From the IMG/VR virus record IMGVR_UViG_3300005830_000045, positions 1 through 64,000 of that record: a stretch of 64,000 nt of DNA; one strand, 5' to 3'. Every line of letters begins with the position of its first letter. Position 1 is the stretch's first letter. The stretch comes from a virus. Positions 45,133 to 63,164 of the stretch are shown here, one piece after another. Both the position numbers and the translations under genes were made by a program. The notes beneath the pieces are model-generated. The model did not search any database, had not been told where the DNA came from, and saw nothing but the letters and a program-made list of their open reading frames with translations.

Positions 45133-45258
45133 TTAGATAAATCTTTCCAATAAAACCTAATAAATTCACAAAGTAGCAAAAAAGTTTGTTTTTTTGGTAG
45201 AATTTTTTGGCAAATTCGTTTATGTTTATCTTATCGGCAACAAATGATGAGGCTAAGG
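45133..45258 (+). other. A/T-rich intergenic segment
   Basis: This 126-base gap is very A/T-rich. It contains CAAAAAA and TTTTTTG arms around GTTTG (45177-45196 region), which could form a weak A-U hairpin, and a -10-like TAGAAT (45198-45203) without a matching -35. No gene is visible. It may hold a phage-specific promoter for the VWA and sigma-like genes. Confidence 0.3.
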
Positions 45259-47274
45259 ATGAAATTAAAGACCAATGCTCGCAGAAACGCACTTGATGGC
45301 CCTTTCACAGCGATAGCAAGGGCCCAAAGTCGTTCCTGGAAAGTCAATATCGTAGCTTCCGGCAGCGTTCTCGCAACAGATGGCAATACTATATATTTTC
45401 CATGGAATAGCGATGACATCGACACTATTCCTTTCAACGTTTTGAATGGATACCTTGACCATGAGGTGGGGCATATCGCAGAAGAAAGGGAGCATGCTAT
45501 AGACGGTCGTGAGACTCCTCTTGAAATCGCAAAGCGTCAAACAAATATCACAAAAAGAATGCTCCTCAATGTATACGAAGACATTCGTATGGAGATAAAA
45601 AGGGGCAAGATTTATCCTGGAGTCGCAGCAAATCTCAAGGCATCTAACGAGCACTCCGTTGGCACCTTTATAAAAAGATTTGGTGATGGCGATGGCATGG
45701 AAAAGGCTAATTTCTGGCACACTTTAGGGTGCGGGATCATCTTTGCCGCTAGGGAACTTGACACCTTTTGGCTTCCAGAGCAGTACGCTCCGTTCATGGA
45801 AATGCTACAGCCTGAAATCGAGGAAAGTAGGCACGTGGTTTGGGCCCAAGACTCGATGGAGCTTGTCGAGAGAACTTTTGAAAAAGTCCGTGAACTAGCT
45901 AAGGATATTGAAGATTGGATGGAAAAGAAGACAGCTCTGAAGAAAGAAGAGAAAGGCGAGTCAGAGTCAAGCGATACAAAGGGCAAGAGTGAAAGCGACA
46001 CGAAGGATGAAGGTGGTGTTGGTGGCCCTAGCGAAGATGGTTCTGACGATGCAACTGCCGAGGATGGTGATGGTGCCTCTGATAGCGCTGAAGGTGGCGA
46101 TCAGGAAGTTGGTGAAGGCGAGGAAAGTGCTAGCGGTGTAGAGGGTGGTGTCAGGCGTGGCGATAACGCCGAAGGCGATACCTCGTTTGGTTCACCCTCT
46201 ACAAGCGCAGAGGACACAAAAGAGGACATGTCTGAAGGCAAAGAAGAAGTGCCATGCGATGGCGCTGAGAAAGCCGCAGAAATCACAGCTGGGGCTTTTC
46301 AAGATGCTGACACCGATGACATCATGTGCGAAGGCAAGAAAGAAATTGAAAAGGCGAGCGAAGATCTTTCTACCTTGCGCGGTGGATACAACCCCTGCCC
46401 CTCTGCCCTTGAGGCTGATCAGTGGATCGTTCCGAAGAAGGGTGAAGAAGCAATTTACAATCAGATCAAGAAGCAGGTCCAGCAGCAGATTTCTGCACTT
46501 CGGTCCAAGTTGATCCACATCATTCGCAGTCGGGCAATTTCTCGCGAGCAATACGAGCAAGACAATGGGAAGCTTGACACTTCTTCGCTTTACCGCTTGC
46601 GCTTGGGCAGTAAGCAGGTATTCAGCAAGACCGTTTCAGGGCAAATGCTTGACACCGCAGTCACGGTGCTCGTGGACCTTTCTGGCTCGATGGGCGATTC
46701 AAATTTTGCCTATTCCAGAGCTTGTTACGCTAGGATGACGGCTGTTGCCCTTGCAGAAACTTTTGAATCAATCAACGTTCCTTTCGAGATAATAGGGTTT
46801 CACAACAGCTACGACATCCCTTTCAAGCCTGATCGCAGTGGAGCGTTCGTGAATAGACTTCCCTTTGAGTATCACGTTTACAAGAGCTTTGAAGAGGTCC
46901 ATCGCTCCGTTCGATGCCGTCTTGTTGGGATAACAGGACGGCAAGAGAACGCTGATGGCGAGGCAATCGTGGGGGTCGCAAGGAGATTGGTTGTTCGTCC
47001 TGAGAGTCGCAAGCTCATGTTCGTTATCAGCGACGGAAAGCCAGTCTGTCCCGGATTGAGTGATGAAGTTGGCTCAAGACATTTGATTGATTCAATCAAA
47101 AAGGTGCGAGGGGCAGGGATTATCCTTTTTGGTATCGGAGTGCAGCATTTGGATATCGTGCGTTACTATGGCGTAGAGCACAGCATTTGCGTGGACAAAC
47201 TTGACAAGATGGCCGAAAACATTTTCAAGGTCGTGCGTTCCGTACTTATCGCAGGCCTCAAAAAGGTGGCGTGA
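45259..47274 (+). CDS. metallopeptidase-like/VWA protein (CobT or DUF2201-like partner of MoxR)
   Basis: 671 residues from ATG 45259, chosen because GATGAGG lies 6-7 bases upstream; ATG 45244 has no SD. N-terminal domain with HEVGH (68-72), the HExxH of a putative metallopeptidase. Residues ~215-345 are extremely acidic and Gly/Ser-rich. A helical part follows (IYNQIKKQVQQQISALRSKL). The VWA domain starts at ~465 with the MIDAS motif DLSGS (D473) and later FVISDGKP. HExxH plus VWA recalls DUF2201-type proteins; the acidic linker recalls CobT. With the upstream MoxR ATPase it forms a remodelling/chelatase-like pair. Its target is unknown. Confidence 0.75.
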   Translation: MKLKTNARRNALDGPFTAIARAQSRSWKVNIVASGSVLATDGNTIYFPWNSDDIDTIPFNVLNGYLDHEVGHIAEEREHAIDGRETPLEIAKRQTNITKRMLLNVYEDIRMEIKRGKIYPGVAANLKASNEHSVGTFIKRFGDGDGMEKANFWHTLGCGIIFAARELDTFWLPEQYAPFMEMLQPEIEESRHVVWAQDSMELVERTFEKVRELAKDIEDWMEKKTALKKEEKGESESSDTKGKSESDTKDEGGVGGPSEDGSDDATAEDGDGASDSAEGGDQEVGEGEESASGVEGGVRRGDNAEGDTSFGSPSTSAEDTKEDMSEGKEEVPCDGAEKAAEITAGAFQDADTDDIMCEGKKEIEKASEDLSTLRGGYNPCPSALEADQWIVPKKGEEAIYNQIKKQVQQQISALRSKLIHIIRSRAISREQYEQDNGKLDTSSLYRLRLGSKQVFSKTVSGQMLDTAVTVLVDLSGSMGDSNFAYSRACYARMTAVALAETFESINVPFEIIGFHNSYDIPFKPDRSGAFVNRLPFEYHVYKSFEEVHRSVRCRLVGITGRQENADGEAIVGVARRLVVRPESRKLMFVISDGKPVCPGLSDEVGSRHLIDSIKKVRGAGIILFGIGVQHLDIVRYYGVEHSICVDKLDKMAENIFKVVRSVLIAGLKKVA

Positions 47275-52655: not shown

Positions 52656-53388
52656 TTTGGGAGGAATATGCGTGGCGAAAGTTGTTGATAGTCGCACAGG
52701 AGAATTTGATCGTGCTCGTATTAGAGATAATGCTCCGCATTCGCATTATGCTCTTGATCGTGAGGATATTCACATTGAGCTTGCTGCCTTTGAAAAGGTT
52801 TGCAGGAGAATAGGAGAGCGTAGTGATTGGACCGTATTCGAGCCATTTGGTGGTTCTGGTTGGCATTCTTCTTTGATCAGGCGTTTGGTTGGTCCAAGAA
52901 AGCAATTTGTGGTTGATATTTCAAAGGATTGCATTCGTTCTGTTTGTGCTGGTTTGAAAGGCAATCGTGGTGTGATTGCTATTTGCGGAGATGGCTGTGA
53001 TTACCTAAGGCATTCCAAGTGGAAATTCAATTGGATTCACGCTGATTTCAATATTTGGACGGCTGAAGACATGAGTCTTGACCCTGAGTTGCGTGGCACT
53101 TGGAATGCTCTCTTTGAAATGGCAACGGATTGTATTACTTTCACGGACACTACGCATTATCACCTGGCTAATAGTCCTGTTGTGTATTGGTATGATGAAG
53201 TTGATCGTTGGATCAAGGTCACGAAGGGTTGGAAAGTTGATTTCGTGTTCGATTGGGGGCCAGCGGCCATGCATGTGCTTTCTCCTTTGAAGGAGAAAGA
53301 AAAAGAGGTTTTCGCAAAACCGCTCATAGTACAGGTCAGGGAACCTATGAAGGTAACAGTTTTGAGAGAGGAGAGCAGTGATGAGTAA
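52636..53388 (+). CDS. methyltransferase-like protein
   Basis: 250 residues from ATG 52636. A class I SAM-binding pattern is visible: VFEPFGGSGWHSSLIRRLVG (motif I, E-x-F-x-G-x-G), FVVDISKDCIRSV (acidic loop after beta2) and FNWIHADFNIWTAED at the position of motif IV. The last differs from the D/N-P-P-Y/F of DNA amino-methyltransferases (A-D-F-N-I-W), so activity on an amino group is doubtful. It may modify a base or a nucleotide in this cluster, or be a catalytically changed relative. Confidence 0.55.
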   Translation: MKITTVDLGGICVAKVVDSRTGEFDRARIRDNAPHSHYALDREDIHIELAAFEKVCRRIGERSDWTVFEPFGGSGWHSSLIRRLVGPRKQFVVDISKDCIRSVCAGLKGNRGVIAICGDGCDYLRHSKWKFNWIHADFNIWTAEDMSLDPELRGTWNALFEMATDCITFTDTTHYHLANSPVVYWYDEVDRWIKVTKGWKVDFVFDWGPAAMHVLSPLKEKEKEVFAKPLIVQVREPMKVTVLREESSDE

Positions 53389-54739
53389 TCAGAATGAAGA
53401 CACGACCATTGACACTATGGTATTCAACAAGCGTTTGATGAATAACATTGTCAGACTTCCTTTTGAAGTTGAAACAGCTCGTGGTTCTGCTATTCGTACT
53501 GTTCAGGGGCACGTTTTGTTGGATTTCTGGGGCGATGAAGGCGTATGTAGTCTTGGATACAACACAGAAGAATACAGAAGGATAGTGGATAATTTTCACA
53601 GCAGTGGACAACCGCATCAGTTGCCAGATGTTTATCCCCAGACCTCCAGATTCAACGCAGCAGAGAAGATTTGCCAGATGACAGATATGGACCGCATCTT
53701 TTTCGCAAATAGCGGTACAGAAGCGAATGAAGCAGCCATCAAAATTGCAAGAAAATTTTGGTGGGATAAGTATAGCAATATATATAGAGAAGGAAGAATA
53801 AAGTCAAATAAAGCGTACGCACGGCGGCATATAGTTCTCACAATTGCCGGAAACTTTCATGGCAGAACTGGGCTAAGCAGCGCGGCAAGCGACCCAAGGG
53901 TCAGTCCGTATCACCATTGGGGGTTTGGCCCGAAGCCAAAAGGTTTTGGCGTTATCGACGATAAGACTTTCCTTCAAGTCGTTACAGACGGCGATGTCCA
54001 TGAAGATTATCCGATTGAACCTGATTGGTCCAACGTTGCTGCTGTGATTCTTGCTCCGGTTTTGGGAAACAATTTGGTAAAGACATATTCTAAAAGCTTT
54101 TGGGAGGAACTTGGAGCTTTGAGGAAGAAGCACGGATTTCTTATTATCCACGATGACGTTCAAGCCGGAAGCGGAAGAGCAGGTTGGCCAGCAACGTATC
54201 AAGGGATTTCTGTCTTTGATTCGAGGTTTGAAAGCTTGGTCAAACCAGACATATTGTGTCTCGGGAAAGGCATGGCTCTTGGCTATCCAATGAGCGCGAT
54301 GCTTGCCTCTGAAGAAGTTGCTTCCGCTTTTACTCCCGGTGTCCACTTCAACACTTTTGGAGGCAGCCCTTTCGTTTGTTATCTTGCCGAGCAATATTAT
54401 AGTTGGCTTGAATTGGAACTTCCGAAAGTCAGAGATTTGGGCGAGGCAATTCGTTTGCGTTTCTCTGAAATGGCCTGGATCAAGGAGCATGACGGGTCTG
54501 GTTTGCTCAACGCTTTCACGCCTAATTTCGGGAAGTATGGATATGATGGTTTTGAGTTTTGTCACAAGGCTCGTGATTTCGGCATTAGCATTGTGACCCA
54601 TCGACGATATGGGCCAATTCGATTCACGCCTCCAATGAACGTTGCTCCTGATGAGATTGCTACCGCCTTTATTGCGTTGGAAAGAACACACAAGTTTTTG
54701 ACAAAAGAACACAGAAGCTTTAGGTTGGAGGATGAATAG
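53381..54739 (+). CDS. class III PLP-dependent aminotransferase
   Basis: 452 residues from ATG 53381 with GAGGAG upstream and an ATGAGTAA overlap. PLP-binding features: FFANSGTEANEAAIKIARKF (phosphate-cup region), IIHDDVQAGSGRAGWPATYQ (D-x-V-Q; Asp contacts the pyridine N) and DILCLGKGMALGYPMSAML with the Schiff-base Lys in GKG. The overall plan matches acetylornithine/GSA-type aminotransferases. In phages the substrate is unlikely to be a host amino acid pathway. A role in tailoring an amino-acid-derived base modification is attractive, given PLP enzymes in known thymidine hypermodification, but unproven. Confidence 0.85.
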   Translation: MSNQNEDTTIDTMVFNKRLMNNIVRLPFEVETARGSAIRTVQGHVLLDFWGDEGVCSLGYNTEEYRRIVDNFHSSGQPHQLPDVYPQTSRFNAAEKICQMTDMDRIFFANSGTEANEAAIKIARKFWWDKYSNIYREGRIKSNKAYARRHIVLTIAGNFHGRTGLSSAASDPRVSPYHHWGFGPKPKGFGVIDDKTFLQVVTDGDVHEDYPIEPDWSNVAAVILAPVLGNNLVKTYSKSFWEELGALRKKHGFLIIHDDVQAGSGRAGWPATYQGISVFDSRFESLVKPDILCLGKGMALGYPMSAMLASEEVASAFTPGVHFNTFGGSPFVCYLAEQYYSWLELELPKVRDLGEAIRLRFSEMAWIKEHDGSGLLNAFTPNFGKYGYDGFEFCHKARDFGISIVTHRRYGPIRFTPPMNVAPDEIATAFIALERTHKFLTKEHRSFRLEDE

Positions 54740-56069: not shown

Positions 56070-59000
56070 ATGCATGATTCAGAAAAGAAAGAAGATTTTG
56101 TTCATCTCCACACTCATAGTGATTTGAGTCAGCTTGACGGCTGCGGAAAGATTTCTGATTACGTGGACGCAGCCCATAAGCGTGGAAATCCAGCAATCTC
56201 GTTCACTGATCATGGAACTATGAGAGGATACATGACGCAGTATGAGGAGTGCAAGAGGGCTGGAATCAAGCCAATCTACGGGGTTGAATTCTACGTTTCT
56301 CGAAATATGTACCGTAAGGGTATCACCGCTGAAGAAAAGACGGAACTTTCAAAGGGCAGGACCAAGGCGCAAGCGAAGGAGGTGATTGCGCAATACGAAA
56401 TAAATGAAGGGATCAGAAAGCGTTGGCACCTGACGGTGCACGCCGAAACAGAAGCGGGGCTGAAAAACCTTTTCAGACTGACCTCGAAAGCTTTCATTGA
56501 AGGTTTTTACTACAAGCCTCGAATAGATATTGAAACGCTCTGCGAGCACAGCGAAGGTTTGATTGTTTCTTCTGGTTGCGTTGGAAGTCCAGTCAATAGT
56601 AATTGGTTTGAAGGGAATAGGCGTTATGCCGTTGAAGTATCAGATAAGTTGCATGAGGTGTTCCAAGACCGTTATATGATTGAAATTCAGCCGCACGATA
56701 TAGCAGAACAGCTGGAAGCGAATAAGTTGGCTGTGAAACTCAGGAAAAGATATGGCGGGAAATCGCGTCTTGTCGCGACGCAAGATGCTCATTATATCAA
56801 CAAAAGTGATGCCGTTCACCACGATGTTCTTCTTTGCATAGGCACAGGAAGTTATCTTTCAGACCCAAAGCGTATGAAGTTTGACGGCGATGAATTTCAT
56901 ATGCGAACACGTCGTGAGATGATTCGAGCATTCATGAAGTGGCACAGCGGATTGACCAAGGGCCAAATAAAAGAGGCATTGGACACCACGATGCTCTTCC
57001 ACGAGCGTTGCAACGTCAAACTCAATATTGACTATCACGCAGCCTTGCTTCCTGATCCTGGTATCCCTCCTGAATATGTCGATGATTTCTCGTATTTGAA
57101 AGATTTGTGCATTCAAGGTTGGAGCTGGAGAGAAATACCGGCAAGGGCTTTAGCGTATTCGGTGAAACACGGGGTGCCTTACGAGGAAGCTTTGTCGCTT
57201 TACAGCAAACGTTTGAAGCATGAACTTGGAGCTATAAAGAAGCAAAGATTTGTTCCGTATTTTATTCTAATACACGACTTGTATCGTTGGGCACGCGGTG
57301 AGAATATAATGGTTGGCCCTGGTCGTGGAAGCGTAGCAGGTTGCCTAATTGGGTATCTGATCGGATTGACTTCTGTTGACCCTATTGATCATGGGTTGAT
57401 CTTTGAGCGATTCATCAACCCAAATCGTATCGACATGCCTGATATTGATATGGACTTTGAAGACAGGAGAAGGCAAGAGGTTTTTGCATACCTCAGGAGG
57501 AAGTACGGTGAAGACAAAGTTTGCCAAATTGCCACCGTTGGCAAGCTATCCGGGAAGCAGTGTCTCAAGGATGTTTCTCGCGTTCTACAGGTTCCATACG
57601 CGGAAGTCAACCAGGTGACAAATTCCATCATCGAGCGTTCTAGCGGGGATGAACGGGCATCGCAGACAATTGAAGACTCTTTCAAGGAGTTTGAAATATG
57701 TCGAGATTTTGATAAGAGATACCCGAAAGTTTTGTATCATTCAAAACGTCTTGAAGGCATGGCCAAAAACTTGGGAATACACGCTGCAGGAGCTGTTGCC
57801 TCTCCGGTGCCGCTGACAGATATCATCCCTCTGGAAGTGAGGAAGCATAATGGGAAAGATGTTATAGTCTCAGCCGTGGACATGTACGGCGTTGCTGCGA
57901 GTGGTTTGGTAAAGCTCGATGTTTTAGGTTTGCGCACACTCACCGTTTTGAAAGAAGCGACAGAAGCGATAGAAGAAAGGCATGGCAGGAAGATTGACCT
58001 TGAATCAGCAGAAGTTGATTTGAGCGACCCGAAAGTTTTGAAGGGGTTCACAGATCACGATTATGGAGGCGTTTTTCAGTATGATACGCCTTCAGCGGAC
58101 AAGGTCTGTTCAGGCGTCAAGTTCTCTTCTTTCGAGGACATTGCCGCCATGACAGCTCTCAACAGGCCAGGCACATCCAGAAGCGGTTTGGCATCCCGAT
58201 ATGTGGACAGAAAAAAGAATCCAGAGAAAGCAAAGAAACACGATTTCCATCCAGCTGTTTCCGAGATAACGAAGGACACGTTGGGCATTATCGTGTACCA
58301 AGAGCACGTCATAAAGATATTCACAGACATCGCTGGATTTGCTCCGGCAACGGCTGACTCTTTGCGTAAAACAATCGCTAAAAAGATTGGCGATGAAACC
58401 ATGGGGAAGGAACGTGCCAACTTTGTTGCTGGAGCTGTTGAGAAAACGGGAATGGACGAGAAAACCGCACATAAGATTATGGACGCGATAACTTTTTTCG
58501 GGTGCGTTCCTTGGTGGACGCAAATAGCAACGCCATTTGGGCCAAGGGCAATTGATTCTTTGTCTGATGGTGATGAAATTTACAGCGTTGAAGAATGCGG
58601 GAAAGTTGTCATCAATACCATAAAGACGGTCACAAGCACAGGGCCAAAGGATTTGTATCGAATAACTGCGAGCGGTTTTATGGTTGATTCTTCCAACGAC
58701 CACTATTGGGAGTGCATGGAAGGAGGTTACAAAAAGGCTAGTGAGCTTTGTGAAGGTGAATTCATATCGTATGTTATGGGGCATGGATTCAAATCATCCG
58801 AAAAAGAAAAGCTTTTGCTTGAAGAAGGATTGCGCAAGGGAAGTGTTTTGCCGAGGATTGTGCAGCCTTCATTATCAGAGACAGTACAGAAAGAAGCGGA
58901 CAGAAAAGGGCAACCCTGTGAGCAGTGCGCACAACAAGTGGCCCGGAGCACCGGGCAAGGGTTGGAAAAGGGGCAAAAACAAGAATACGCATCCAGGGAT

Positions 59001-60836
59001 AGCAGCGCACGCGAAAGCTATGATGGGAGAGTTGAATCCGGCTTGGACAGACTGGAGTTATTCAGAATTCAAAATAATGAAAGATACGCTGCTGGAAAAG
59101 ATAAAGGTCTGCCAAAGGTGCGGTTGCCCTCCGGACGAGGGAAGCGATGCCCCGAATGTGAGAGTTTTGCACGTCCACCACAAGAACAGAAACAAAAAGG
59201 ACAATTCGGCGGACAACTTGGAAGTTCTCTGTCAATCTTGTCACAGCAAGGAGCATTGGGAGGAAAAGCACTCTGGTGGATTCGGGTGGATGAAATTCGT
59301 CAAATAGCAGATAGATCAACGCACAGAAGTGGTTGCCCTGCTAGGGATATTGAGTGTTATGACATAGAGGTTGATTCTAGTCCATGTAATTATGTGGCTA
59401 ACGGAATAATATGCCATAATTCCTATGGATTCAATAAGAGCCATGCAACAGCTTATGGGATGATAGCGTTTTGGTGCATGTTTCTCAAGACCTATTATCC
59501 TCTTGAGTTTTATTGGTCGCTGTTGAAAAACGAGCCAGACCGTGTCCGGATACAACAGTTGGCGAAACACGCAAAGAAGAAAGGCATATCATTCTTGTCG
59601 CCTTCTGTGAACACTTCCAAGGCGCACTTTGCCATAGATGATAGTCGTGGAGCAATTCGAGGTTCCCTTGTAGACATAAAAGGAGTTGGGACAGCGGCAG
59701 CGAAAGCTATTATGGCGACGCAGCCTTATACTGACTTTTTTGACTTCCTTGATCGAGTAGACAAGAGAAAGGTTCACAAAGGCGTCGTGGCTTCTCTTGT
59801 CCGGGCAGGAGCACTGGATGATTTGGTCCCCAATCCTCGGTGGCTTATTGAGAACATGGAAGCATTCTGGAAGCAAGTTGCGAAGAAGTCAGAGGAAGCG
59901 CAGAAAGAAGCAAGGCGGATGATTGAGGCGTCAAAGGATGAAAAGTCTTGGGACGCAGAGGAAAAGCAGCTTATCGCTTCCAAGGTGAACCCTCTTGCTT
60001 TCGGGAAGCACCCGATGGATACTTACAAGGATTTCTTGAATAAAAACGTGAAGATAAAGATTGCAGATATGTCAGCTGGTGATTTCTATGAGAGGAATGA
60101 TGGAAGAATAGTCCTTGTCGGTGGAACTATAGTGGAAGTGAAACTCAATCAAATAGGTGACTTTCACACTGGAAGGCTGCCGACTGAAGAGGAACGTGAG
60201 CGTATGTTTTGGGGGAAACGTTATGCTAACGTAAACATAGAAGATATTGGCGGAGTTCAGAATAGAATCAAGTTTGATTGGGACGTTTACCCTGGTATGC
60301 GTCCTGTTATTGAATTAGGTTTGGGTGCTCCGGTGCTCGTGATGGCCTCTGTGAATGCGAAATTTGAGAACATGAGGGCTTTTTTCGCAGTCGATTTGGA
60401 GGGGATGAGAAAGAAGTTGATTTCGGGGAAACCATTGGGCATGTGGGAAAGCATTGTGACCGGAAACCATCCTGTGAAGCACATAAAGGCTAAGAGCGAT
60501 GCCGTCAAAAGAGCCATGTGGACCAATAAATATTACAGGATGTCTCCGAAAGGAGGTCCATTTTGGGGTGTTGTGACGAACATTCGTTTGAAATACGACA
60601 AGCGCGGTCAACTTATGGCTTTCTTTGGTCTTATTGGCGGCAACGGTTTCATGATTGATGTAATTTGCTTTGCTTCTCAATGGGAATTTGTCAAAACTGT
60701 AATCAGCGTTGAACAGGTGTTGAAGATAGAAATAGGCAGATCAAGAGAAAGAGGCAGAGGAGTGTCTCACATTTTCAACGGTGGCTTGGTAAAAAGTTTC
60801 AAGTCTGTTTGTGAAAAGGAGAAAGAAGATGAGTAA
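56070..60836 (+). CDS. dnaE: DNA polymerase III alpha subunit (DnaE-type) with intein
   Basis: 1588 residues, of which 812-1117 are an intein; the spliced enzyme is 1282. N-terminal PHP domain: VHLHTHSDLSQLDGCG, ISFTDHGTMRGYM and IYGVEFYVSR. Palm: VGPGRGSVAGCLIGYLIGLT (~414) and DMPDIDMDFEDRRRQEV (~455, catalytic D-x-D). A further motif is GIHAAGAVASP. The sequence around the intein, FFG/SYGFNKSHATAYG, is the invariant DnaE segment. The C-terminal part contains a helix-hairpin-helix (IKGVGTAAAKAIM) and an OB-like end. It is the replicative polymerase. It overlaps the HU-like gene at ATGAGTAA. Confidence 0.9.
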   Translation: MHDSEKKEDFVHLHTHSDLSQLDGCGKISDYVDAAHKRGNPAISFTDHGTMRGYMTQYEECKRAGIKPIYGVEFYVSRNMYRKGITAEEKTELSKGRTKAQAKEVIAQYEINEGIRKRWHLTVHAETEAGLKNLFRLTSKAFIEGFYYKPRIDIETLCEHSEGLIVSSGCVGSPVNSNWFEGNRRYAVEVSDKLHEVFQDRYMIEIQPHDIAEQLEANKLAVKLRKRYGGKSRLVATQDAHYINKSDAVHHDVLLCIGTGSYLSDPKRMKFDGDEFHMRTRREMIRAFMKWHSGLTKGQIKEALDTTMLFHERCNVKLNIDYHAALLPDPGIPPEYVDDFSYLKDLCIQGWSWREIPARALAYSVKHGVPYEEALSLYSKRLKHELGAIKKQRFVPYFILIHDLYRWARGENIMVGPGRGSVAGCLIGYLIGLTSVDPIDHGLIFERFINPNRIDMPDIDMDFEDRRRQEVFAYLRRKYGEDKVCQIATVGKLSGKQCLKDVSRVLQVPYAEVNQVTNSIIERSSGDERASQTIEDSFKEFEICRDFDKRYPKVLYHSKRLEGMAKNLGIHAAGAVASPVPLTDIIPLEVRKHNGKDVIVSAVDMYGVAASGLVKLDVLGLRTLTVLKEATEAIEERHGRKIDLESAEVDLSDPKVLKGFTDHDYGGVFQYDTPSADKVCSGVKFSSFEDIAAMTALNRPGTSRSGLASRYVDRKKNPEKAKKHDFHPAVSEITKDTLGIIVYQEHVIKIFTDIAGFAPATADSLRKTIAKKIGDETMGKERANFVAGAVEKTGMDEKTAHKIMDAITFFGCVPWWTQIATPFGPRAIDSLSDGDEIYSVEECGKVVINTIKTVTSTGPKDLYRITASGFMVDSSNDHYWECMEGGYKKASELCEGEFISYVMGHGFKSSEKEKLLLEEGLRKGSVLPRIVQPSLSETVQKEADRKGQPCEQCAQQVARSTGQGLEKGQKQEYASRDSSARESYDGRVESGLDRLELFRIQNNERYAAGKDKGLPKVRLPSGRGKRCPECESFARPPQEQKQKGQFGGQLGSSLSILSQQGALGGKALWWIRVDEIRQIADRSTHRSGCPARDIECYDIEVDSSPCNYVANGIICHNSYGFNKSHATAYGMIAFWCMFLKTYYPLEFYWSLLKNEPDRVRIQQLAKHAKKKGISFLSPSVNTSKAHFAIDDSRGAIRGSLVDIKGVGTAAAKAIMATQPYTDFFDFLDRVDKRKVHKGVVASLVRAGALDDLVPNPRWLIENMEAFWKQVAKKSEEAQKEARRMIEASKDEKSWDAEEKQLIASKVNPLAFGKHPMDTYKDFLNKNVKIKIADMSAGDFYERNDGRIVLVGGTIVEVKLNQIGDFHTGRLPTEEERERMFWGKRYANVNIEDIGGVQNRIKFDWDVYPGMRPVIELGLGAPVLVMASVNAKFENMRAFFAVDLEGMRKKLISGKPLGMWESIVTGNHPVKHIKAKSDAVKRAMWTNKYYRMSPKGGPFWGVVTNIRLKYDKRGQLMAFFGLIGGNGFMIDVICFASQWEFVKTVISVEQVLKIEIGRSRERGRGVSHIFNGGLVKSFKSVCEKEKEDE
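58503..59420 (+). other. intein in DnaE, 306 residues
   Basis: Starts at Cys812 (CVPWWTQIATPFGPRAIDSL, block A). Block B follows: GPKDLYRITASGFMVDSSNDH, trimmed here as DSSNDHYWECMEGGYKKA. The intein ends with block F (YDIEVDSSPCNYVANGIICH) and His-Asn, with Ser+1 as the first C-extein residue. All residues for splicing (Cys1, block B His, terminal His-Asn, Ser+1) are present. Between N- and C-terminal splicing parts (~902-1077) the frame is open but encodes a Gln/Gly/Arg/Glu-rich stretch with no endonuclease motif. The HNH endonuclease is in the +1 frame. The site is two residues before that of the cyanobacterial split DnaE intein. Confidence 0.9.
58741..59307 (+). CDS. HNH endonuclease encoded in the +1 frame inside the intein
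   Basis: Up to 188 residues from GTG 58741, following AAGGAGG (58720-58726); ATG 58771 and 58783 are other possible starts. An N-terminal zinc finger, SFCLKKDCAREVFCRGLCSL, H-Y, is typical of phage HNH proteins. The HNH core is VCQRCGCPPDEG, VLHVHHKNRNKKDNSADNLE and VLCQSCHSKEHWEEKH: two CxxC pairs, His-His, Asn, and final His. It has its own stop (59305-59307). It is out of frame with the polymerase, which stays open throughout. It presumably makes the break for intein homing, as a separately translated protein. Confidence 0.85.
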   Translation: MSFVKVNSYRMLWGMDSNHPKKKSFCLKKDCAREVFCRGLCSLHYQRQYRKKRTEKGNPVSSAHNKWPGAPGKGWKRGKNKNTHPGIAAHAKAMMGELNPAWTDWSYSEFKIMKDTLLEKIKVCQRCGCPPDEGSDAPNVRVLHVHHKNRNKKDNSADNLEVLCQSCHSKEHWEEKHSGGFGWMKFVK

Positions 60837-61943: not shown

Positions 61944-63164
61944 GTGGGAATTGATATGAAGTGTATGCGTAGAACGTATGACGAGAATCAGCGTGGAGGC
62001 GACATCTGGACGGCTGATGTTGGCGTGACCATGGTCTATATCCATGGACAATGTCGAGAGGATGGCCATGAACCGACCAAGGGCTTGAACCATGTTCCGG
62101 TTGTCGTTCACTATGGTCTTGGTCGCGATGGCCGGCAAATGGTTGTTTGTTTGGATCAAGAGAGGAATCCTATTGTCACGCATCCGTTCGTGAAAGCGTA
62201 TTTGAAATCAAAAGGTGTAAAGATTGGCAAGAAGTGCCCTGTTTGTCGTGCGATTGAAAGCGGAGAAATGGACGCTGATCAAGCTGACCGTTCTGCTCCT
62301 ACAACCAGATTTCTTTGGGGTGTCACGCCTATCGCTCACAAACCATCGAAATCTTCCGAGGGATGGAATAAGCTCACGCCAAAGCCGCAGTGCACTTTCG
62401 TTGGTTCTACGCTTTACAACGGTTTCATGGATTTGTTTTTTGAAAATGGGGATATCACAGACTTGGACCAAGCAACTTTTGCCTTGATCTATCGCACTGG
62501 GAAGGGGCAATATGACACAAAGTACGAGGTGAAGATTGATCCGGCCACGCTGAAATCTCCGAAAAAGATTCCAGGAGCGTTGCGACGGGTATTGATCAAG
62601 TCTGTCTCGAAAGATGGCGATTGTGATCTTTTCCGTATTGTCGCGAACATGGTCAAAAGCACGGAAGATATCAAAGGCTTGCTTTCTGGTGCAACTGTCG
62701 ACACGTCTGAAGGCGATGACGATGACTTTGATGAAGGCGATTTGGTCGATGATGATAGTGTCTTGGGCGATGATGAACTTGATGACGGTGGTGATGGCCT
62801 CGATGACGGTGGTGATGGCCTCGATGATGACGGTGATGACGGTGATGACTTTGACGGCGATGACGGCGATGAAGGCGATGACTTTGACGGTGAACTCGAT
62901 GACGGTGATGATCTTCTTGGCGAGGATGGTGACGAGGCAGCCGCAAGCGAGGATACACCCGAGGATACAGGCGATGATGAAGAAGAGGCAGAGGAGGCAG
63001 AAGAGGACACCTCTGGCGATGACGATGATGACTTGGGCCTTGATGAGTTGGATGCTGAACTCGAAAGGGTGACCAAAAAGGCAATCGAAAATAAAGCGAA
63101 GAAAGCTGGCAAGCTTGTCATCAAGCCTGCCAAAAAGCGTATAAATAAGAAAGCAAAAGCCTAA
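61944..63164 (+). CDS. gp32-like single-stranded DNA-binding protein
   Basis: 406 residues from GTG 61944, with AAAGGAGG upstream. The N-terminal ~250 residues resemble a gp32 core: VVHYGLGRDGRQMVVCLDQE, a Cys pair in KIGKKCPVCRAIESG, and CTFVGSTLYNGFMDLFFENG. A ~105-residue acidic region (Asp/Glu/Gly) follows, as in SSB C-terminal tails that bind partner proteins. Unusually it ends in a basic helix (RVTKKAIENKAKKAGKLVIK). It would coat ssDNA and bind RecA, helicase and polymerase encoded around it. Confidence 0.75.
   Translation: MGIDMKCMRRTYDENQRGGDIWTADVGVTMVYIHGQCREDGHEPTKGLNHVPVVVHYGLGRDGRQMVVCLDQERNPIVTHPFVKAYLKSKGVKIGKKCPVCRAIESGEMDADQADRSAPTTRFLWGVTPIAHKPSKSSEGWNKLTPKPQCTFVGSTLYNGFMDLFFENGDITDLDQATFALIYRTGKGQYDTKYEVKIDPATLKSPKKIPGALRRVLIKSVSKDGDCDLFRIVANMVKSTEDIKGLLSGATVDTSEGDDDDFDEGDLVDDDSVLGDDELDDGGDGLDDGGDGLDDDGDDGDDFDGDDGDEGDDFDGELDDGDDLLGEDGDEAAASEDTPEDTGDDEEEAEEAEEDTSGDDDDDLGLDELDAELERVTKKAIENKAKKAGKLVIKPAKKRINKKAKA
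62781..62822 (+). repeat. tandem 21-bp repeat in SSB acidic tail
   Basis: GATGACGGTGGTGATGGCCTC occurs twice head to tail (62781-62801, 62802-62822), each encoding DDGGDGL, within a longer GATGAC-rich tract. It is a likely site of slippage length variation. Long open frames on other strands here are products of this repetition. Confidence 0.8.

What the first reader, a model, noticed from the sequence alone, without database searches (positions are those of the whole stretch)
58503..59420. DnaE intein whose HNH endonuclease is encoded out of frame, overprinted on an open linker
Seen: splicing blocks A, B and F are in the polymerase frame (C812 to H-N/S1118). Between them, 58771-59307 encodes a full zinc-finger-plus-HNH endonuclease in the +1 frame with its own TAG, while the polymerase frame has no stop over the same ~179 codons and encodes a Gln/Gly/Arg/Glu-rich linker. 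An SD (AAGGAGG, 58720-58726) precedes an in-frame GTG. Inference: the homing enzyme is made as a separate protein by internal initiation, and selection keeps both frames open. Classical inteins carry the endonuclease in frame. I know of no standard description of this layout, but cannot search. It would let the endonuclease be lost or replaced without harming splicing.
Basis: partly seen in the sequence, partly recalled or inferred. Interest (0 to 1): 0.93.

Follow-up and report, generated by a model that had tools for sequence, protein, structure and literature searches.

The report
Intein with out-of-frame overprinted homing nuclease
In this phage's DNA polymerase gene, a self-splicing protein insert and the DNA-cutting enzyme thought to spread it are written over each other in two reading frames of the same DNA, and the same trick recurs unannotated in many unrelated phages.

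Summary
The dnaE ORF (56070-60836) carries a Hint-type intein at 58503-59420. A zinc-finger/HNH nuclease ORF lies in the +1 frame (GTG 58741, ATG 58771 or ATG 58783, to TAG 59305-59307). Frame 0 stays open across it.

The layout recurs at the same dnaE site in five other phage lineages, in two loops of the intein and with two HNH types. It also recurs in terminase (TerL) inteins: 36 contigs related to Synechococcus phage S-EIVl, plus Gordonia phage Clown, Acinetobacter phage Highwayman and Tetrasphaera phage TJE1. In +1-phase cases, T before AA/AG/GA is never used (0/862 versus 966/2558 elsewhere in the TerL set). Free-standing HNH relatives and in-frame HNH inteins show no comparable avoidance.

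The HNH frame evolves under protein-level constraint, while frame-0 residues drift and only openness is kept. AlphaFold gives a Hint fold whose overprinted part (aa 94-255) is disordered. Some relatives lost the HNH by a stop or deletion while frame 0 stayed intact.

Best reading: a mini-intein carries a separately translated HNH homing enzyme. Splicing, cutting and internal initiation are inferred. Nearest precedent: the 2025 ShiLan element, also out of frame but without a splicing domain. A 2025 preprint on actinophage inteins could not be read.

The parts
56070..60836 (+). dnaE, DNA polymerase III alpha subunit precursor (extein + intein, 1588 aa)
   Evidence: No internal stop; PHP, DNA_pol3_alpha, finger and HHH_6 domains; PHROG 405 DNA polymerase E 1.5e-289
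58503..59420 (+). Intein in the polymerase frame (306 aa, C1 ... H-N, +1 Ser), inserted at FFG^SYGFN
   Evidence: Intein_splicing profile spans both ends; TIGR01443 intein_Cterm above cut-off; empty site in many related phages
58503..58772 (+). N-terminal splicing part (Hint blocks A and B, intein aa 1-90)
   Evidence: 39% identical to the 154-aa mini-intein at the same site in L018; AlphaFold pLDDT about 90; Foldseek match to solved mini-inteins
59346..59420 (+). C-terminal splicing part (blocks F/G, intein aa 282-306)
   Evidence: 56% identical to mini-intein L018; pLDDT 82-88
58773..59345 (+). Frame-0 linker between the splicing parts (aa 91-281), open and mostly predicted disordered; overlaps the HNH gene
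   Evidence: No stop; pLDDT below 50 over aa 94-255; absent from mini-intein L018
58741..59307 (+). HNH endonuclease ORF in the +1 frame (from GTG 58741, the start with the strongest SD; other starts ATG 58771, ATG 58783) ending in TAG 59305-59307
   Evidence: Pfam HNH; 49-52% identical to +1-frame HNHs of L003, L035, L026 and 43% to L009
58816..58875 (+). N-terminal zinc-finger motif of the HNH protein (CLKKDCAREVFCRGLCSLHY)
   Evidence: Cysteines 12, 17 and 27 invariant in 5 relatives
59110..59256 (+). HNH catalytic core (CQRCG...LHVHHKNRN...NLEVLCQSCHSKEH)
   Evidence: Invariant C110, C113, H132, H133, R136, N145, C150, C153, H154, H158 in the alignment; pLDDT 77-92; Foldseek EcoKMcrA / GVE2 HNH
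58720..58726 (+). Shine-Dalgarno sequence AAGGAGG, 14 nt before GTG 58741
   Evidence: duplex energy -10.0 kcal/mol with the anti-SD tail, against a median of -2.55 for ATG/GTG triplets in the upstream dnaE

Best explanation
It is a mobile intein whose splicing module and homing endonuclease are encoded in two overlapping frames of the same DNA and made as two separate proteins. Ribosomes that start at dnaE read frame 0 through the whole element; the Hint domain, with a long disordered loop where the HNH gene lies, excises itself and joins the polymerase halves (inferred from the fold and motifs). Other ribosomes start inside the intein at an SD-start pair and translate the zinc-finger HNH protein in the +1 frame up to its own stop (inferred). 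That protein cuts dnaE alleles lacking the intein, and repair copies the element in (inferred from the HNH family and patchy distribution). What is shown: both frames open, strong purging of frame-0 stops through synonymous third positions, protein-level constraint on the HNH frame in the TerL relatives, recurrence in several lineages, mobility between distant TerL clades, and loss of the HNH with frame 0 kept.
For: Frame-0 stops are purged: expected versus observed 11.4/0 (window), 7.0/0, 4.1/0, 14.2/0, 7.4/0 and 7.5/0 in the six dnaE lineages and 3.9/0 in Clown. Across 16 non-redundant S-EIVl-type TerL HNHs, T before AA/AG/GA is 0/862 versus 966/2558 elsewhere. Controls lack this: free-standing or otherwise encoded HNH relatives 286/1039 versus 733/2271, in-frame HNH inteins 39% versus 39%, window dnaE exteins 87/384 at risk. 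HNH-frame codon positions 1 and 2 change far less than position 3 in close pairs (L168/L180: 0.028, 0.033, 0.192), while frame-0 residues diverge 2-3 times faster than HNH residues. The intein matches a mini-intein at the same site with a 191-aa stretch between the matched parts that holds the HNH; the model has a Hint fold plus a disordered linker. SD-start pairs: L003 ATG -10.0, L009 ATG -7.4, L035 TTG -7.3, L004 ATG -6.9, L026 ATG -6.4 kcal/mol. Mobility: same-site presence/absence among related phages; the HNH of L163 groups outside its own TerL clade with full support. L183 has a nonsense codon and L188/L189 a 126-codon deletion in the HNH with frame 0 intact.
Against: No protein, splicing or cleavage data. 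In the window itself the SD-GTG spacing (14 nt) is longer than usual and the ATG starts have weaker SDs. Two TerL relatives (L166, L173) have no ATG/GTG/TTG start within 130 nt upstream of the match. Substitution tests could not be made for the dnaE copies, which are too divergent; they rest on the TerL relatives. The Pfam score of the window intein (25.0 bits) is below the curated cut-off of 35.8, although the C-terminal model passes its own cut-off.
Confidence: 0.85

Rival explanations
1. Sequencing or assembly indels make an ordinary in-frame HNH intein look out of frame.
For: Metagenomic (IMG/VR) contig, raw reads not available.
Against: The same phase is found in independent contigs from many samples and in finished isolate genomes. 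Frame 0 would not show selective avoidance of T before AA/AG/GA if it were an error product.
Confidence: 0.01
2. The HNH is made by a programmed +1 frameshift from the polymerase frame, giving an N-extein/Hint-N/HNH fusion rather than a separate protein.
For: The HNH frame is +1 in all dnaE cases, and in the window the +1 frame is open for 105 nt before 58771.
Against: In L003 the +1-frame TAA directly abuts the HNH ATG; in L035 and L026 the +1-frame stop lies 15-18 nt before the start, leaving almost no room to shift; each has an SD at a start codon. TerL cases of another HNH type use the +2 phase. Slippery sites were not searched for.
Confidence: 0.07
3. The element is not spliced: it is a ShiLan-like out-of-frame HNH inserted in a gene whose frame-0 product simply tolerates a loop.
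For: Published precedent in phage methylases (PMC11855218); similar methylase cases seen here in L116-L118.
Against: Here the insert has C1, block B histidine, terminal H-N and +1 Ser, a similar mini-intein at the same site, and an AlphaFold model matching solved mini-inteins at E 8.6e-7. Several TerL hosts score above the Intein_splicing cut-off.
Confidence: 0.03
4. A self-splicing RNA intron carries the HNH and the open frame is incidental.
For: Group I introns often carry HNH genes (established knowledge).
Against: No Rfam intron match in 58000-60000 at E up to 1, Hint domain present, frame-0 stops purged.
Confidence: 0.01
5. The overlap is real but the HNH is inactive in this phage, a relic of earlier homing.
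For: Relatives with a dead HNH exist (L183, L188, L189); no close relative of the window's HNH allows a substitution test.
Against: The window's HNH ORF is intact, with zinc ligands and HNH residues conserved against relatives at 43-52% identity.
Confidence: 0.1

Closest known systems
[quoted passage not shown] GenBank note in Mycobacterium phage Violet gp57)
   Same: HNH with zinc fingers in another frame of an insertion that leaves the host frame open; patchy distribution; separate translation proposed
   Different: ShiLan has no splicing domain and is thought to stay in the protein, and no RBS was found. Here the host frame is a Hint-type intein, so the insert can be removed, and SD-start pairs are present
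Classical HNH inteins with the endonuclease in frame (L046, L053, L060 at the same dnaE site; cyanophage CL131 dCTP deaminase intein, PMC6293099)
   Same: Hint domain plus HNH between the N- and C-splicing parts; for the three loci, same insertion site
   Different: Endonuclease is part of the same polypeptide; no avoidance of T before AA/AG/GA in the three loci
Mini-intein at the same dnaE site (L018)
   Same: Splicing parts 39% and 56% identical, same insertion point
   Different: No insert, no HNH
Fractured genes: split inteins with a free-standing endonuclease gene between the halves (Dassa et al. 2009; from memory, paper not held)
   Same: Endonuclease is a separate ORF placed between the intein halves
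   Different: There the host gene is broken into two ORFs joined by trans-splicing; here one unbroken frame runs through and overlaps the endonuclease gene
Free-standing HNH genes beside terL (Lactobacillus phage CL2, Pseudomonas phage PAE1, Exiguobacterium phage EauM-23)
   Same: Relatives of the HNH type found in the +2 phase in other TerL inteins, next to the same host gene
   Different: Outside the gene, no overlap; a plausible source of the embedded form
Gosselin, Arsenault & Gogarten 2025 preprint 'Actinobacteriophage Inteins ... Non-Canonical Architecture' (bioRxiv 2025.01.02.630785)
   Same: Cited in PMC11855218 in connection with overlapping reading frames in actinophages
   Different: Text not held here; whether it describes intein-embedded out-of-frame HNHs could not be checked

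Membership tests
Intein (Hint-type protein-splicing element) | C/S/T at position 1, block B histidine, C-terminal H-N, +1 C/S/T, in host frame | tested here: met
   C1, H67, H305-N306, Ser+1, frame 0 open
Intein (Hint-type protein-splicing element) | Hint fold | tested here: met
   AlphaFold pLDDT about 90 for aa 1-93; Foldseek Ssp DnaB mini-intein E 8.6e-7, TM (target) up to 0.83 among the matches
Intein (Hint-type protein-splicing element) | Profile match | tested here: inconclusive
   Pfam Intein_splicing 25.0 bits, below cut-off 35.8; NCBIfam intein_Cterm 19.5 bits, above cut-off 15.6. TerL homologues S-EIVl, Clown and Highwayman pass Pfam's cut-off
Intein (Hint-type protein-splicing element) | Insertion absent from homologous genes at a conserved site | tested here: met
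   Empty site in many related DnaE loci
Intein (Hint-type protein-splicing element) | Actual protein splicing | not testable with these tools
   Needs expression and mass spectrometry
Classical full-length intein | Homing endonuclease in frame in the same polypeptide | tested here: not met
   HNH is in the +1 frame with its own stop
HNH endonuclease | HNH motif and zinc ligands | tested here: met
   PF01844 E 1.8e-6 above cut-off; PHROG 1271 E 7.3e-12; conserved core
Homing endonuclease | Cuts the empty allele and drives copying | not testable with these tools
   Only indirect: patchy distribution and tree conflict
ShiLan-type insertion | Out-of-frame HNH with host frame open | tested here: met
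ShiLan-type insertion | No splicing domain | tested here: not met
   Hint domain present
Group I/II intron | Catalytic RNA core | tested here: not met
   No Rfam intron match

The most novel reading that the evidence does not exclude
Overprinted inteins are a general class of phage mobile element, not a curiosity. HNH genes carrying their own start and stop have repeatedly settled out of frame inside inteins (at least three HNH types, +1 and +2 phases, dnaE and terL hosts, two different loops of the Hint domain). The splicing protein and the homing enzyme are thereby made as two independent proteins, and the endonuclease can be gained, lost or replaced while the splicing frame persists.
Probability: 0.75. 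Interest if true: 0.85.

Novelty: new variant of a known kind. Interest (0 to 1): 0.8.

Why it matters
Inteins are normally pictured as one polypeptide in which an endonuclease domain was inserted in frame into a splicing domain. These elements reach the same association without any fusion: an HNH gene only needs a phase in which the host frame can be kept open, and in the +1 phase every stop can be removed by a synonymous T-to-C change. That offers a simple route for how endonucleases invade mini-inteins and how mini-inteins arise again. It also adds a set of large, conserved same-strand overlapping genes in phages that annotation pipelines miss: the S-EIVl, Clown, Highwayman and TJE1 terminase records carry no HNH annotation, and any intein survey that reads only the host frame would score such elements as lacking an endonuclease.

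Tried and rejected
Artefact by paired indels: rejected by homologues. Chance openness: rejected by synonymous-codon shuffles and controls. RNA intron: no Rfam match. Frame-0 linker as a conserved functional protein: rejected, since frame-0 residues diverge 2-3 times faster than HNH residues. My first idea that the HNH is always in +1 was wrong: another HNH type sits in the +2 phase in L143, L149, Highwayman, TJE1 and MD07. In TJE1 and MD07 alone the +2 openness is not significant (P 0.22 and 0.13). L150 was listed as embedded but its matched frame reads as something other than an HNH and is not used. The tblastn search of the whole intein against isolate phages found nothing, and scans with the HNH alone found few dnaE relatives. 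HNH Foldseek matches are weak (best E 0.025). Literature: the key preprint is not held.

Full report
Observation. The window is part of an 80,479-base virus record. The dnaE ORF 56070-60836 is uninterrupted, with an intein from C812 to N1117 (nt 58503-59420) before S1118. In the +1 frame an ORF ending in TAG at 59305-59307 encodes a zinc-finger plus HNH protein, scoring above Pfam's HNH cut-off. The third forward frame is full of stops (10 over the HNH ORF).

More than chance. In this phase a frame-0 stop arises when an HNH codon ending in T is followed by a codon starting AA, AG or GA. NNT and NNC are always synonymous, so such stops can always be removed without changing the HNH protein. Shuffling synonymous codons within the ORF predicts 11.4 stops; none is present, and 20,000 shuffles never gave fewer than 3. 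The third-position preference is specific: 0 of 68 codons at risk end in T, against 33 of 105 elsewhere.

Same dnaE site in other phages. Related DnaE genes from IMG/VR show every state at FFG^SYGFN. Some are empty; L018 has a 154-aa mini-intein; L046, L053 and L060 have inteins with an in-frame HNH. Five further lineages have an HNH in +1 with frame 0 open: L003, L009 and L035 with the HNH in the usual endonuclease position, L026 with the same HNH family near the intein N terminus, and L004 with a different HNH type also near the N terminus. Each shows 0 frame-0 stops against 4.1 to 14.2 expected. The window's splicing parts match mini-intein L018 at 39% (N part) and 56% (C part), leaving 191 residues between them that contain the HNH gene.

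Terminase inteins. Searching phage isolates with the HNH led to Gordonia phage Clown gp5, and with Clown's HNH to Synechococcus phage S-EIVl terL. Both are TerL inteins, recognised by Pfam Intein_splicing above cut-off, with an HNH in +1 and frame 0 open; neither HNH is annotated. S-EIVl's HNH has 36 relatives in IMG/VR, all with frame 0 open over the matched stretch and 11-19 stops in the third frame. Another HNH type, with the HNH before its zinc fingers, sits in the +2 phase inside TerL inteins of L143 and of Acinetobacter phage Highwayman, Tetrasphaera phage TJE1 and Rhodobacteraceae phage MD07, and in L149, where the Hint motifs were read by eye only. Relatives of that type are free-standing next to terL in other phages, which suggests where the embedded genes came from (inference).

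What is selected. In 16 non-redundant S-EIVl-type HNHs, T at at-risk third positions occurs 0 times in 862, against 966 in 2558 elsewhere (Fisher T versus C, p 6.5e-129; sequences are related, so the p-value overstates independence). Free-standing or otherwise encoded HNH relatives use T at 27.5% of such positions and in-frame HNH inteins at 39%. In close pairs the HNH frame shows the signature of a protein under constraint (positions 1 and 2 slow, 3 fast), while frame-0 residues diverge two to three times faster than HNH residues. Frame 0 therefore needs to be open but not to keep any particular sequence. This agrees with the AlphaFold model of the window intein: residues 1-93 and about 256-306 form a confident Hint fold, and residues 94-255 are disordered. 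Foldseek returns solved mini-inteins (Ssp DnaB, E 8.6e-7).

Loss and movement. L183 differs from L180 at 6 of 945 bases; one change makes a stop in the HNH and only a residue change in frame 0 (single contig, may be a sequencing variant). L188 and L189 have lost 126 codons, destroying the HNH but leaving the intein in frame at 211 aa. So endonuclease loss without loss of the splicing frame is seen. The HNH tree disagrees with the TerL tree: L163's terminase belongs to one deep clade and its HNH to the other, both with full support. With the patchy same-site distribution this supports mobility; homing itself is not shown.

Expression. The five other dnaE copies each have a start codon near the HNH domain with an SD better than most background triplets: L003 ATG -10.0 kcal/mol with a +1-frame TAA directly before it, L009 -7.4, L035 TTG -7.3, L004 -6.9, L026 -6.4, against a background median of -2.55. 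The window's GTG 58741 has a strong SD (-10.0) at a long 14-nt spacing. I favour internal initiation and a separate protein; a +1 frameshift fusion has little room in L003, L026 and L035 but is not formally excluded.

What is known. The nearest published case is the ShiLan domain, an out-of-frame HNH in a phage methylase without a splicing domain (PMC11855218); a GenBank note in phage Violet records the same kind of thing. That paper cites a preprint on actinophage inteins with 'non-canonical architecture' for frequent overlapping frames; it is not held, so priority for the intein form is unsettled. Full-text searches found no other report. I therefore rate this a new variant of a known kind: a true Hint-type intein combined with an overprinted, separately encoded HNH, recurrent across phages.

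Limits. No splicing, cleavage or expression has been measured; the window's own HNH has no close relative for a substitution test; IMG/VR contigs are metagenomic; two TerL relatives lack an obvious start codon.

Noticed in passing
L018:6234-8430: One phage dnaE gene carries three inteins within a few conserved codons: a mini-intein at FFG^SYGFN, an in-frame HNH intein after SYGFNK, and a third after SHATAYGMIAFW.
   Followed up: no
L189:2017-5319: A TerL gene with a second, separate intein-like insertion upstream of the overprinted one (endonuclease-like residues read by eye); the downstream intein's HNH has been largely deleted.
   Followed up: partly
[quoted passage not shown]
   Followed up: partly
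L190, L191, L196: Acinetobacter phage Highwayman, Tetrasphaera phage TJE1 and Rhodobacteraceae phage MD07 TerL inteins with an unannotated HNH in the +2 phase.
   Followed up: partly
window 61944-63164: SSB-like protein (PHROG 1192) with an extremely Asp/Gly/Glu-rich repetitive C-terminal tail.
   Followed up: no
window 53378-54739: Class III aminotransferase (PF00202, E 2.3e-51) encoded in the phage shortly upstream of dnaE.
   Followed up: no
window 45244-47274: CobT-like cobaltochelatase subunit / phrog_1576 protein.
   Followed up: no
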